Origin: Cellulomonas sp. APG4 | GTDB lineage: Bacteria > Actinomycetota > Actinomycetes > Actinomycetales > Cellulomonadaceae | Direction: 5' to 3' | NCBI RefSeq assembly: GCF_009996735.1 | Contig: NZ_JAACYI010000004.1 | Span: 1-64,000, forward strand | DNA: 64,000 nucleotides | Part shown: piece by piece, positions 2,272-40,540 of the stretch | Position numbering within the stretch: position 1 is the first letter of the stretch | Layout of the letters: every line of letters starts with the position of its first letter | Translations under genes and position numbers: made by a program | Notes under the pieces: generated by a model | Told to the model about the DNA's origin: nothing | Database searches by the model: none | Seen by the model: only the letters and a program-made list of their open reading frames with translations

Positions 2272-2344
2272 GGGCCTCTAGCTCAATTGGCAGAGCTGCG
2301 GACTTTTAATCCGTAGGTTGAGGGTTCGAACCCCTCGGGGCCCA
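2272..2344 (+). tRNA. tRNA-Lys(TTT)
   Basis: 73-nt cloverleaf. The acceptor stem pairs GGGCCTC (2272-2278) with GGGGCCC (2337-2343), with one T-G wobble, and the discriminator is A at 2344. The anticodon is TTT in loop CTTTTAA. The T-arm is GAGGG TTCGAAC CCCTC. CCA is not encoded. This is the prophage integration target. The copy of its 3' part at 39965-40004 carries GTGGG/CCCAC in the T-stem, so the two T-arms differ by a compensated base pair. Confidence 0.97.
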
Positions 2345-2578
2345 CACCAGCTCGTCGATCGTGACGCCGAGCACCGTGGCCGCACCGGCGAGATCCCGGG
2401 CGGTCCACGTGATCGCTCCGCGCAGCTTCTTGCTGAGGACGGACTGCGTCATACCCATCGCCTCGGACATCGCGGTCTGCGTCAGACGGCGATCCCACAT
2501 CAGGTGATGGACGTTGCGACCGATCTCGACGTCGAGGTCACGGGTGACGGTTGCCTCTGCGGGGCCTGTTGCTGCCAT
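2306..2578 (-). CDS. XRE-family HTH protein, candidate immunity repressor; 3' end in attL
   Basis: 90 residues from the ATG at 2578 (a TTG three codons upstream is also possible). A lambda-repressor-like HTH covers residues 22-77: LTQTAMSEAMGMTQSVLSKKL is the turn and recognition helix. The last 14 codons (VWAPRGSNPQPTD) are antisense to the tRNA-Lys 3' end, and the TAA stop is contributed by the host anticodon loop (2306-2308). In circular phage DNA the same frame would cross attP and continue 29 codons, giving about 119 residues. The ATG is 7 bases from a -10 box, so the message is probably leaderless. Position, divergence from the HTH gene at 2658 and proximity to attP all suit an immunity repressor. 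The role is inferred. Confidence 0.8.
   Translation of the reverse strand: MAATGPAEATVTRDLDVEIGRNVHHLMWDRRLTQTAMSEAMGMTQSVLSKKLRGAITWTARDLAGAATVLGVTIDELVWAPRGSNPQPTD
2309..2348. repeat. attL core (tRNA-Lys 3' repeat)
   Basis: 40-bp direct repeat of 39965-40004. It starts ATCCGTAGGTTG just after the anticodon and runs four bases past the tRNA. 38 of 40 positions match. The two differences are an A/T at 2321 and T/A at 2335, which pair with each other in the T-stem. The prophage lies immediately to the right. Confidence 0.92.
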
Positions 2579-2657
2579 GCGCGTCAATCTAGGCCAGTCG
2601 CGTCAATCCTGTCTAGGTGCTTGACGAACAGTCACGTCAGGACTAGCGTCTCGCGAC
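2579..2657. promoter_or_regulatory. Divergent leaderless promoters of the lysogeny switch
   Basis: Leftward: -35 TAGACA (2615-2610), 18-bp spacer, -10 TAGATT (2591-2586), 7 bases, repressor ATG. Rightward: -35 TTGACG (2621-2626), 17-bp spacer, -10 TAGCGT (2644-2649), 8 bases, ATG of the HTH gene at 2658. The two -35 boxes are only 5 bp apart. GCGTCAATC occurs twice (2581-2589 and 2600-2608), 19 bp apart, within the leftward promoter and is a candidate operator pair. Both transcripts would begin at or next to the start codon. Confidence 0.65.
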
Positions 2658-2867
2658 ATGACCAGTCACGACGCGACAGAACGGTCCAAGAACGACTGGC
2701 TGACCTCGGCTGAGGCGGTCGCTCTCCTCCCGGGCGTGACCATCCGCACCCTCCAGCGGTGGGCAGACAGCGGCAAGGTCCCCTCGGCAACGCTGCCGTC
2801 GGGCCGCCGGCGCTTCCGCCGCGCGGACATCGAGGCGCTCCTTGAGGTCTCTCGGAGCGCGTCGTGA
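2658..2867 (+). CDS. MerR/excisionase-like HTH protein
   Basis: 69 residues with a winged-HTH of the MerR/BldC/Xis kind: WLTSAEAVALLPGVTIRTLQ, then RWADSGKVPSATLPSGRRRF and RRADIEALLE. Such small proteins act in actinophages as excisionases or as Cro-like early regulators. The sequence alone does not separate these. It is the first gene of the rightward early operon, read from its own leaderless promoter and divergent from the repressor. Its TGA overlaps the GTG of the next gene. Confidence 0.85.
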   Translation: MTSHDATERSKNDWLTSAEAVALLPGVTIRTLQRWADSGKVPSATLPSGRRRFRRADIEALLEVSRSAS

Positions 2868-38820: not shown

Positions 38821-39756
38821 TCACGCCGCCGCGACCTTCGAGCCCGCCGCACCGATCATCGCGGCCGCAGCGACCGCATTGCGCAGGTGCTGATCCGGCA
38901 GCTGAACGTAGATCCGAGTCGTGTCCGGGCTCGAGTGCCCCAGCAGCTCCATCACCGCGAGCAGGTCCCGCGTGCCCGCGTAGGCCACCGTCCCGAACCT
39001 GTGCCGCAGCGTGTGCGCCGTCCACCCGTCCGGCATCGCCCGCGCCATGAGCTTCGACACGTGGTTCGGCGACAGGTGCCCACCCCGCCCGTTCGGGAAC
39101 AGCCAGCCGTCCGCGTTCGCGATCGCCTCGAGGAGTTCGGGCGGGCCGATGGGGACCTGGCGGTCCTTGCCGCCCTTGCCGTGGACGGTGAGGCGGTCGC
39201 CGTCGAGGTCCCACGACGAGACGCGCGAGATCTCGCCGGCGCGCAGGCCCGCGAAGACGGCGAGGGCGACCATGAGCCGCACTCGCTCGTCGCTGGCGTG
39301 CAGGCTCTGCGCGACGACGCTCTCGGGCGCCGGGCGCGGCCGCCCCCGCGGTACACGCACGGTCGGCAGGCGCACGGTGGGGTCGACGTCGACGTGGCCG
39401 TTGCGGTGCGCCCAGCGGTAGAAGCCTGCGATCGCGGTGCGCATGGACTTCTTCGCGGCCAGGCTCTGCTCGGGCCCGCCGCGGCGCGTCGCGCGGGGCG
39501 TGCGGTCAAGCGTCGCGAGGAGGAGTTCGAGGTCGCCCGTGGTGACGTCCCACGGCCCGCTGTCGAGGCGCTGGGCGGCCTGGCGCAGGTAGTGCCGGTA
39601 GAGCGTGACCGTCGCGGGTCTACGGCCGGCGGCCGTCAGCGAGGTGCAGTAGTTCGTGATCGCGGTGTTCCATCCCTGGTTTGTTGTCATGCCAGCACAC
39701 GTGCCCGCGCCGCGGCGTGGGACAGTGCCGGACCGGGGGCGGGTGGTGCGGGTCAT
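38821..39756 (-). CDS. Tyrosine-type integrase
   Basis: 311 residues from ATG 39756, chosen for GGAGGG eight bases upstream; ATG 39690 lacks a site. N-terminal SAM-like core-binding domain (TAITNYCTSLTAAGRRPATV, LAAKKSMRTAIAGFYRWAHR). Catalytic set: Arg172 (GLRAGEISR), Lys near 197 (KGGKDRQ), His248-Arg251 (HTLRHRFG), His274 (LLGHSSPDTT), Tyr283 (RIYVQ). The C-terminus is GSKVAAA, resembling an ssrA-type degradation signal. It is adjacent to attR and, in circular phage DNA, downstream of the repressor on the same strand. Confidence 0.95.
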   Translation of the reverse strand: MTRTTRPRSGTVPRRGAGTCAGMTTNQGWNTAITNYCTSLTAAGRRPATVTLYRHYLRQAAQRLDSGPWDVTTGDLELLLATLDRTPRATRRGGPEQSLAAKKSMRTAIAGFYRWAHRNGHVDVDPTVRLPTVRVPRGRPRPAPESVVAQSLHASDERVRLMVALAVFAGLRAGEISRVSSWDLDGDRLTVHGKGGKDRQVPIGPPELLEAIANADGWLFPNGRGGHLSPNHVSKLMARAMPDGWTAHTLRHRFGTVAYAGTRDLLAVMELLGHSSPDTTRIYVQLPDQHLRNAVAAAAMIGAAGSKVAAA

Positions 39757-39964
39757 GTGGAAGCCCTCCGTGTCGTCGTTGACACGAAGGGCATCGACCA
39801 AGGTCAGATGACGGGCATGGGGCCTCACGGGTCGGTGGACTGGCCGACTGGCGAGGAGCCTGTGGGTACGACGGTCACGACGCGACGTCCTCGTCAGCGG
39901 CCGCCGGGGCGCTCGAACCAGCCCAGGGGCCGACGATCACGTCTGCGACCTGCGCAGACGTGTC
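39757..39964. other. attP right-arm region
   Basis: 208 bases between integrase and attR core. CGTGTC (39769-39774)/GACACG (39781-39786) and ACGTCTGC (39939-39946)/GCAGACGT (39954-39961) are inverted repeats; the second abuts the core and is a candidate recombinase-binding arm. The leftward frame from 39964 to 39875 (29 codons) is the extension that attP would add to the repressor and that attR adds to the GNAT gene. Confidence 0.6.
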
Positions 39965-40540
39965 ATCCGTAGGTTGTGGGTTCGAACCCCACGGGGCCCA
40001 CACCGCCCTGACCGTCGCGTACAGGGCCATGTCGACGCGGCGCCCGCCGATCTCCTGGTGGCTGAGGAGCACACCTTCGCGCGCGTACCCGGCGCGCTCG
40101 GCGGTGCGCACGGACGCCACGTTCCACGGTTCGACGTAGAGCTCGACGCGATGGATGACCGGGAGGCTCCACGCGAACGCGGTGAGAGCACGGAGCGCCT
40201 GCGCGGCGACTCCCCGGCCGCGCTCACGCGGGGCGACCCCGTACCCCGCGGTCGCCCGCCCGGTCGCGGCGACGGCGAGCGACAAGCCTGCCTGCCCCAG
40301 GGCGCGGTCGTCGCCCGCATCGGCGACGCAGAACGAGTAGCCGCGGCCGTCAGCCAACCGTGCGTACTGCCGGTCGATCCAGTCGAGTGCCTGCTCTGCG
40401 CTCGCATCAGCCACGAGGGTGCCGGTGAGCGGGACGTACGGGTCCGTGGCGAGGTCGCGCACCATGTCGACGTCGCGTGCCTCGAAGGGGCGCAGCCGGA
40501 CCGAGCCGTGCGCCGGGAGCTCGGCGGGCATCGTCAGCAT
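39875..40540 (-). CDS. GNAT acetyltransferase with phage-encoded C-terminal tail
   Basis: 221 residues. RimJ/RimL-type N-acetyltransferase: VRLRPFEARDVDMVRDLATD, YSFCVADAGDDRALGQAGLS, AGYGVAPRERGRGVAAQALR (acetyl-CoA loop), HRVELYVEPWNVASVRTAER, AGYAREGVLLSH. The enzyme proper ends near VDMALYATVRAV. The next residues VWAPWGSNPQPTD are antisense tRNA, and the last 29 residues come from the phage arm. Without the prophage the gene would end at the TAA in the tRNA anticodon loop. Start 40540 or 40531; no clear ribosome site. Confidence 0.88.
   Translation of the reverse strand: MLTMPAELPAHGSVRLRPFEARDVDMVRDLATDPYVPLTGTLVADASAEQALDWIDRQYARLADGRGYSFCVADAGDDRALGQAGLSLAVAATGRATAGYGVAPRERGRGVAAQALRALTAFAWSLPVIHRVELYVEPWNVASVRTAERAGYAREGVLLSHQEIGGRRVDMALYATVRAVWAPWGSNPQPTDDTSAQVADVIVGPWAGSSAPAAADEDVAS
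39965..40004. repeat. attR core (tRNA-Lys 3' repeat)
   Basis: 40-bp copy of 2309-2348 with T at 39977 and A at 39991, which still pair in the T-stem (GTGGG/CCCAC). It is not a tRNA gene: the 5' half is replaced by phage arm sequence. Confidence 0.92.

What the first reader, a model, noticed from the sequence alone, without database searches (positions are those of the whole stretch)
2306..2578. Integration-dependent change of the repressor C-terminus
The XRE repressor frame runs into the attL core and stops at TAA (2306-2308) supplied by the host tRNA anticodon loop, giving 90 residues. In circular phage DNA the core is followed leftward by 39964-39875, open in the same frame, adding 29 residues (DTSAQVA...DEDVAS) for about 119. 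Order on that strand in the free phage would be repressor, attP, integrase. This is the arrangement of mycobacteriophage BPs/Brujita integration-dependent immunity, where the viral form of the repressor carries an unstable tail and only integration yields the stable form. Here the switch uses a tRNA-Lys core instead. The VAS end is not a canonical ssrA tag, so instability is unproven.
Basis: partly seen in the sequence, partly recalled or inferred. Interest (0 to 1): 0.9.

Follow-up and report, generated by a model that had tools for sequence, protein, structure and literature searches.

The report
Prophage repressor truncated by its integration
A bacterial virus carries its own off-switch gene across the exact spot where it inserts into the host chromosome, so insertion swaps a 29-residue, probably destabilising, tail for a stop codon supplied by the host's lysine tRNA gene; this is a new example of a control system already known from viruses of related bacteria.

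Summary
The XRE repressor (2306-2578, -) is 90 aa and stops at a TAA in the tRNA-Lys(TTT) anticodon loop. The attL core (2309-2348) matches attR (39965-40004) at 38 of 40 bases. The rejoined attP gives one open frame of 119 aa, followed on the same strand by a tyrosine integrase.

The open 29-codon tail alone proves little (chance 0.6-0.7 at this GC). Comparison makes the case. The nearest integrases in isolated phages are from IDI phages (Gordonia CW, Mycobacterium G). Other prophages in the same tRNA-Lys show the same layout. The tail resembles that of phage Angel (BPs-type), ADVIVGPW...VAS against ADVLPGPW...KAS (0/5000 shuffles), although the repressors do not align.

tRNA-Lys use is not new (clusters N and CW). 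Degradation of the long form remains untested.

Verdict: new member of a known kind, moderate interest. New details: the shared BPs-type tail and its transfer to a host acetyltransferase ORF at attR.

The parts
2272..2345 (+). tRNA-Lys(TTT) regenerated at attL; 5' part host, 3' part most likely phage-derived
   Evidence: ARAGORN, Rfam tRNA 69.9 bits; T-stem allele comparison with other genus members
2309..2348 (+). attL common core (40 bp, 38 identical to attR); strand exchange most likely within 2309-2320
2306..2308 (-). host-supplied TAA stop of the prophage form of the repressor (tRNA-Lys anticodon loop)
2306..2578 (-). XRE repressor, prophage form, 90 aa, ends ...WAPRGSNPQPTD
   Evidence: HTH_31 1e-06, HTH_26 3.1e-06; phrog_4583 transcriptional repressor 5.1e-09
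2586..2615 (-). promoter-like TAGACA-18-TAGATT, candidate PRep; would place the start near the ATG (possible leaderless mRNA, inference)
   Evidence: consensus match only
2580..2608 (.). two direct repeats CGCGTCAATC (2580-2589, 2599-2608), candidate operator half-sites (inference)
2658..2867 (+). divergent HTH_17/MerR-like gene in the cro/xis position, 69 aa
   Evidence: HTH_17 5.5e-10; phrog_66 excisionase and regulator 4.2e-09; 39% identical over 56 residues to Gordonia phage Bunker gp39
38821..39711 (-). tyrosine integrase, 296 aa from ATG 39711, ends ...GSKVAAA
   Evidence: PF00589 1e-18, phrog_1 1.8e-39; nearest isolated-phage relatives are IDI phages
39875..39964 (-). phage tail exon: 29 codons plus TGA (DTSAQVADVIVGPWAGSSAPAAADEDVAS), in frame with the repressor in attP and with the host GNAT ORF in attR
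39938..39962 (.). 10-bp perfect inverted repeat CACGTCTGCG/CGCAGACGTG with 5-bp spacer beside the core; possible recombination-protein site (inference)
39965..40004 (+). attR common core

Best explanation
This is an integration-dependent immunity cassette. In the free phage, one leftward unit encodes a 119-residue repressor whose last 29 residues lie beyond the attP core, followed by the tyrosine integrase. The long repressor is inferred to be short-lived because its tail carries a BPs-type C-terminal degradation signal (...VIVGPW...DVAS), and the integrase is inferred to be limited by its ...KVAAA end. When integrase recombines attP with the 3' half of tRNA-Lys(TTT), the repressor gene is cut from its tail and now meets a TAA supplied by the host tRNA anticodon loop, giving a 90-residue repressor that accumulates and holds the divergent lytic promoter off. 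Excision restores the tail and removes immunity. Shown here: gene order, att cores, reading frames, tRNA regeneration, relatives with the same layout, tail similarity. Inferred: instability of the long form, activity of the short form, operator and promoter positions.
For: att cores, stop and 119-aa virtual attP frame. XRE repressor, divergent HTH_17/MerR gene and tyrosine integrase in the published order (PMC9262239). Structural and lysis genes lie between the att sites: terminase, portal, protease, major head protein, tape measure, holin. Nearest isolated-phage integrases are Gordonia CW and Mycobacterium cluster G. A same-genus genome (G011) has an att pair at the same tRNA-Lys with a different XRE repressor ending at the same stop and an open in-frame tail YMSEQVSGVVIPGPWGLAPAEGDLEGGVA at attR; G109 repeats the pattern, and IMG/VR L006 and L008 show the repressor side. 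Tail similarity to Angel (BPs-type): 0/5000 shuffles, while the two repressors give no meaningful BLASTP alignment. 27 of 33 hand-collected viral-form tails end in A[A/S] against 6 of 74 neighbouring phage genes. Other elements at the same tRNA mostly have a stop directly after the core.
Against: An open 29-codon tail is likely by chance at this GC (0.6-0.7). Ending A[A/S] is not rare among this prophage's own genes (6 of 26), so the end alone is weak. DNA beside the core is conserved too, which could reflect a recombination site and not only a peptide. The host tmRNA tag ends LAA and this tail does not. No attP was observed directly; no close relative of the repressor was found apart from the same prophage.
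Confidence: 0.85

Rival explanations
1. Ordinary integration beside a repressor: the overlap with tRNA-Lys is a by-product of a common att site, and the extra 29 codons are open by chance, with no effect on stability or activity.
For: Chance of an open 29-codon frame 0.61-0.74; the antisense tRNA 3' half is open in this frame in every genome looked at, and several host-side frames also read into it.
Against: Tail similarity to a cluster G IDI repressor and to other tails at this tRNA-Lys beyond shuffling; independent prophages with the same layout; integrase kinship with IDI phages; the repressor has no stop of its own before the core.
Confidence: 0.08
2. The tail region is conserved as DNA: an integrase or excisionase binding site next to the core, with the reading frame incidental.
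For: 10-bp perfect inverted repeat beside the core; shared CAGGTC(A/G)GCG-like DNA among relatives; in two of three tail pairs the +2 frame scores about as well as the coding frame.
Against: The +2 frame has stops in two of the three tails compared while the coding frame is open in all six. For the window versus C. rhizosphaerae the coding frame clearly wins (58.5 against 22 and 29). Angel shares the peptide with partly different codons. Integrases of IDI systems are reported not to need arm-type sites (PMC9262239).
Confidence: 0.05
3. The tail acts mainly by changing activity (for example activating PRep or altering oligomerisation), not by proteolysis.
For: The BPs long form with A135E modestly raises PRep activity, perhaps through the C-terminal 33 residues (PMC4557955); the conserved VIxGPW stretch lies well inside the tail, not at the extreme end.
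Against: In BPs, both forms bind DNA similarly and the long form is inactive because it is degraded (PMC4557955).
Confidence: 0.12

Closest known systems
Mycobacteriophage BPs/Angel (cluster G) integration-dependent immunity
   Same: repressor-attP-integrase order, tRNA 3'-end attB, two tolerated core mismatches, host-supplied stop at the core edge, tail of about 30 residues with DV(I/L)xGPW and a final -AS
   Different: different HTH domain (no meaningful alignment), tRNA-Lys instead of tRNA-Arg, no overlap of repressor and integrase genes; stop codon wholly in host sequence and not made at the junction
Gordonia cluster CW phages (GMA5, GRU3, McGonagall, Jeanie)
   Same: IDI at tRNA-Lys; closest integrases among isolated phages
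   Different: about 17-kb genomes, core read as CAIRDSNPEPAD, tails end -AA
Mycobacteriophage cluster N (Butters)
   Same: IDI, integrates at tRNA-Lys (PMC7542560, PMC9262239)
   Different: not compared by sequence here
M. abscessus prophages MabC/MabH/MabN/MabO
   Same: IDI with repressors lacking an -AA tag, 20-35 residue truncation (PMC8092301)
   Different: various attB sites; sequences not compared here
G011 prophage of the same genus and the Cellulomonas rhizosphaerae remnant (L099)
   Same: same tRNA-Lys site, integrases about 60-65% identical, similar tails
   Different: G011 repressor only about 37% identical; L099 appears reduced to little more than the integrase

Membership tests
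Integration-dependent immunity (BPs type) | attP lies inside the repressor reading frame | tested here: met
   virtual attP gives a continuous 119-aa frame across the core
Integration-dependent immunity (BPs type) | tyrosine integrase downstream on the same strand as the repressor | tested here: met
   integrase 39711-38821 -, PF00589 1e-18
Integration-dependent immunity (BPs type) | attB overlaps a tRNA 3' end and the tRNA is regenerated | tested here: met
   tRNA-Lys at attL scores normally; mismatches are compensatory
Integration-dependent immunity (BPs type) | integration truncates the repressor by 20-35 residues through a stop at attL | tested here: met
   29 residues lost, TAA at 2306-2308
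Integration-dependent immunity (BPs type) | virally encoded repressor carries a C-terminal degradation signal | tested here: inconclusive
   sequence resembles the Angel tail and ends -AS like Angel; no stability data
Integration-dependent immunity (BPs type) | integrase carries a C-terminal degradation signal | tested here: inconclusive
   ends KVAAA; most of the IDI phage integrases compared end in -AA or -VA; no stability data
Integration-dependent immunity (BPs type) | long form inactive in immunity, short form active | not testable with these tools
   needs experiment
Integration-dependent immunity (BPs type) | divergent Cro-like or RDF-like gene opposite the repressor | tested here: met
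   HTH_17/MerR-like gene 2658-2867 +, related to Gordonia Bunker gp39
Canonical ssrA-tagged (-LAA) repressor | C-terminus matching the host tmRNA tag end | tested here: not met
   host tag ADSKRTDFALAA, tail ends DEDVAS

The most novel reading that the evidence does not exclude
Phages with unrelated repressor domains share a second, non-ssrA kind of degradation tail (DV[IL]xGPW...[KRV]AS) that travels with the integrase half of the cassette; in this lysogen the same recombination that frees the repressor hands the tail to a host acetyltransferase ORF (39875-40540), so lysogeny could also destabilise a host protein.
Probability: 0.3. Interest if true: 0.6.

Novelty: new member of a known kind. 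Interest (0 to 1): 0.42.

Why it matters
It extends a well-studied genetic switch to phages of Cellulomonadaceae-like hosts and shows that different repressor domains have been joined to the same att site and a similar tail. The tail comparison gives a concrete, testable candidate for the non-ssrA degradation signal left open for BPs and several M. abscessus prophages (PMC8092301), and the reciprocal tail transfer to a host gene suggests a simple way in which lysogeny may alter a host protein.

Tried and rejected
Two DNA patterns for the tRNA-Lys core were mis-spaced by me and returned nothing; a corrected pattern worked. The Broussard 2013 paper is not in the library and the BPs record was not found under EU568876, so Angel stands in for BPs; that BPs ends in the same residues is inferred from Angel's 136-aa length and the reported A135E. 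Searching IMG/VR for the core-to-GPW DNA pattern found only two cluster G relatives plus chance hits. A tblastn of the tail against phages gave nothing informative; its best hit has a stop directly after the tRNA core. Candidate operators CGCGTCAATC are not enriched elsewhere in the window. A broader hydrophobic-proline motif in tails (10 of 33 against a shuffled mean of 0.4) was written after seeing the data and is not relied on. Fold prediction of the 119-residue form was not attempted because it is not contiguous in the window.

Full report
Observation. The - strand frame 2578-2306 encodes MAATGPAEATVTRDL...WAPRGSNPQPTD and stops at TAA 2306-2308. That TAA is complementary to positions 35-37 of the anticodon loop of a normal tRNA-Lys(TTT) gene at 2272-2345. 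The 40-bp core 2309-2348 recurs at 39965-40004 with two mismatches, and similarity ends at its edges. Joining 39964 to 2309, as in a circular phage, gives one 119-codon frame with the added residues DTSAQVADVIVGPWAGSSAPAAADEDVAS. The tyrosine integrase follows on the same strand. Between the att sites lie a ParB-like gene, terminase, portal, head protease, major head protein, tape measure, tail and holin genes, so the element is a siphovirus-type prophage.

Chance. At 72% GC a frame stays open for 29 codons with probability 0.61, or 0.74 measured across the prophage. The antisense tRNA half was open in this frame in every genome looked at and usually ends at the same TAA; several host-side frames in relatives also run into it. 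The open frame by itself is therefore not informative. What counts is what relatives do.

Relatives at the same site. Other XRE repressors end at exactly this stop: IMG/VR L006, L007 and L008. In same-genus genome G011 an att pair 37 kb apart holds a repressor about 37% identical ending WAPWGSNPQPTD*, and at attR an open tail YMSEQVSGVVIPGPWGLAPAEGDLEGGVA followed by an integrase 65% identical to ours. G109 shows repressor and tail again; a Cellulomonas rhizosphaerae remnant (L099) keeps the tail YTSPQVSDARVIVGPWAAAPFADDERAS. In contrast, most duplicate cores of other elements at this tRNA (G003, G009, G115, G117) stop directly after the core. G098 contig C4 shares its length of 91,798 bases with a Cellulomonas uda record, so the window's family is probably Cellulomonadaceae (inference).

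Kinship with known systems. The closest integrases among isolated phages are Gordonia cluster CW and mycobacteriophage cluster G (41% to Liefie), both published as integration-dependent immunity phages (PMC5559632; PMC9262239). CW phages and mycobacteriophage cluster N use tRNA-Lys, so that part is not new. The published BPs common core also has two mismatches that leave the tRNA paired, as here.

The tail. Angel, a close BPs relative, has a 136-aa repressor ending NADVLPGPWSTLDKAS. In BPs the prophage form has 103 residues, the 136-residue form is degraded and A135E stabilises it (PMC4557955). One paper calls the BPs signal ssrA-like (PMC4557955), another says BPs does not use an ssrA-like tag (PMC8092301). 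Our tail aligns to Angel's with no shuffle of 5000 reaching the score, although the two repressors do not align meaningfully, and the shared residues partly use different codons. Across 33 hand-collected tails, 27 end in A[A/S] against 6 of 74 neighbouring genes; these tails are related to each other and were picked by eye, so the formal p-value overstates. The host tmRNA tag is ADSKRTDFALAA, so ours is not a copy of it.

Mechanism. Best reading: an unstable 119-residue repressor in the free phage, a stable 90-residue one in the lysogen, with integrase (ending KVAAA) also limited by proteolysis. The candidate PRep (2615-2586) would start transcription near the ATG. Strand exchange lies most likely within 2309-2320, because attR keeps the T-stem allele seen in most same-genus tRNAs and attL carries the other. 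DNA beside the core also holds a 10-bp inverted repeat, so part of the conservation may be a recombination site.

Reciprocal effect. At attR a host GNAT ORF (40540-39875) has no stop before the tRNA-derived core, so it takes over the phage tail in the lysogen (221 aa) and would end at the tRNA TAA in the empty site (192 aa). Orthologues in G011 and G014 align only over residues 1-180; the G011 one ends YAALRP* and neither locus contains a tRNA gene, so this fusion is particular to this strain among those compared.

Verdict. Observation confirmed, interpretation supported, new member of a known kind.

Noticed in passing
window 39875-40540 (-): Host GNAT acetyltransferase ORF runs through the attR core into the phage tail; orthologues end about 12 residues before the tRNA-derived part is finished (around residue 180), so the lysogen would make a GNAT with the phage tail.
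   Followed up: partly
window 39938-39962: 10-bp perfect inverted repeat with 5-bp spacer beside the attR core, inside the tail codons; possible recombination-protein site.
   Followed up: partly
G009:C1:923056-955621, G003:C313:24182-45870, G115:C1:921851-979786: Arrays of three to five tRNA-Lys cores in related genomes suggest tandem integrative elements at this tRNA; most have a stop directly after the core.
   Followed up: partly
L109, L118: Integrase-adjacent tRNA-core frames in Actinomyces polynesiensis and Nakamurella lactea also end in -AS (LRRAS, RRRAS), possible further BPs-like ends.
   Followed up: no
window 2592-2677: Three 18-nt imperfect repeats spaced 34 nt in the repressor/HTH_17 intergenic region and the start of the HTH_17 gene, possible operators.
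   Followed up: no
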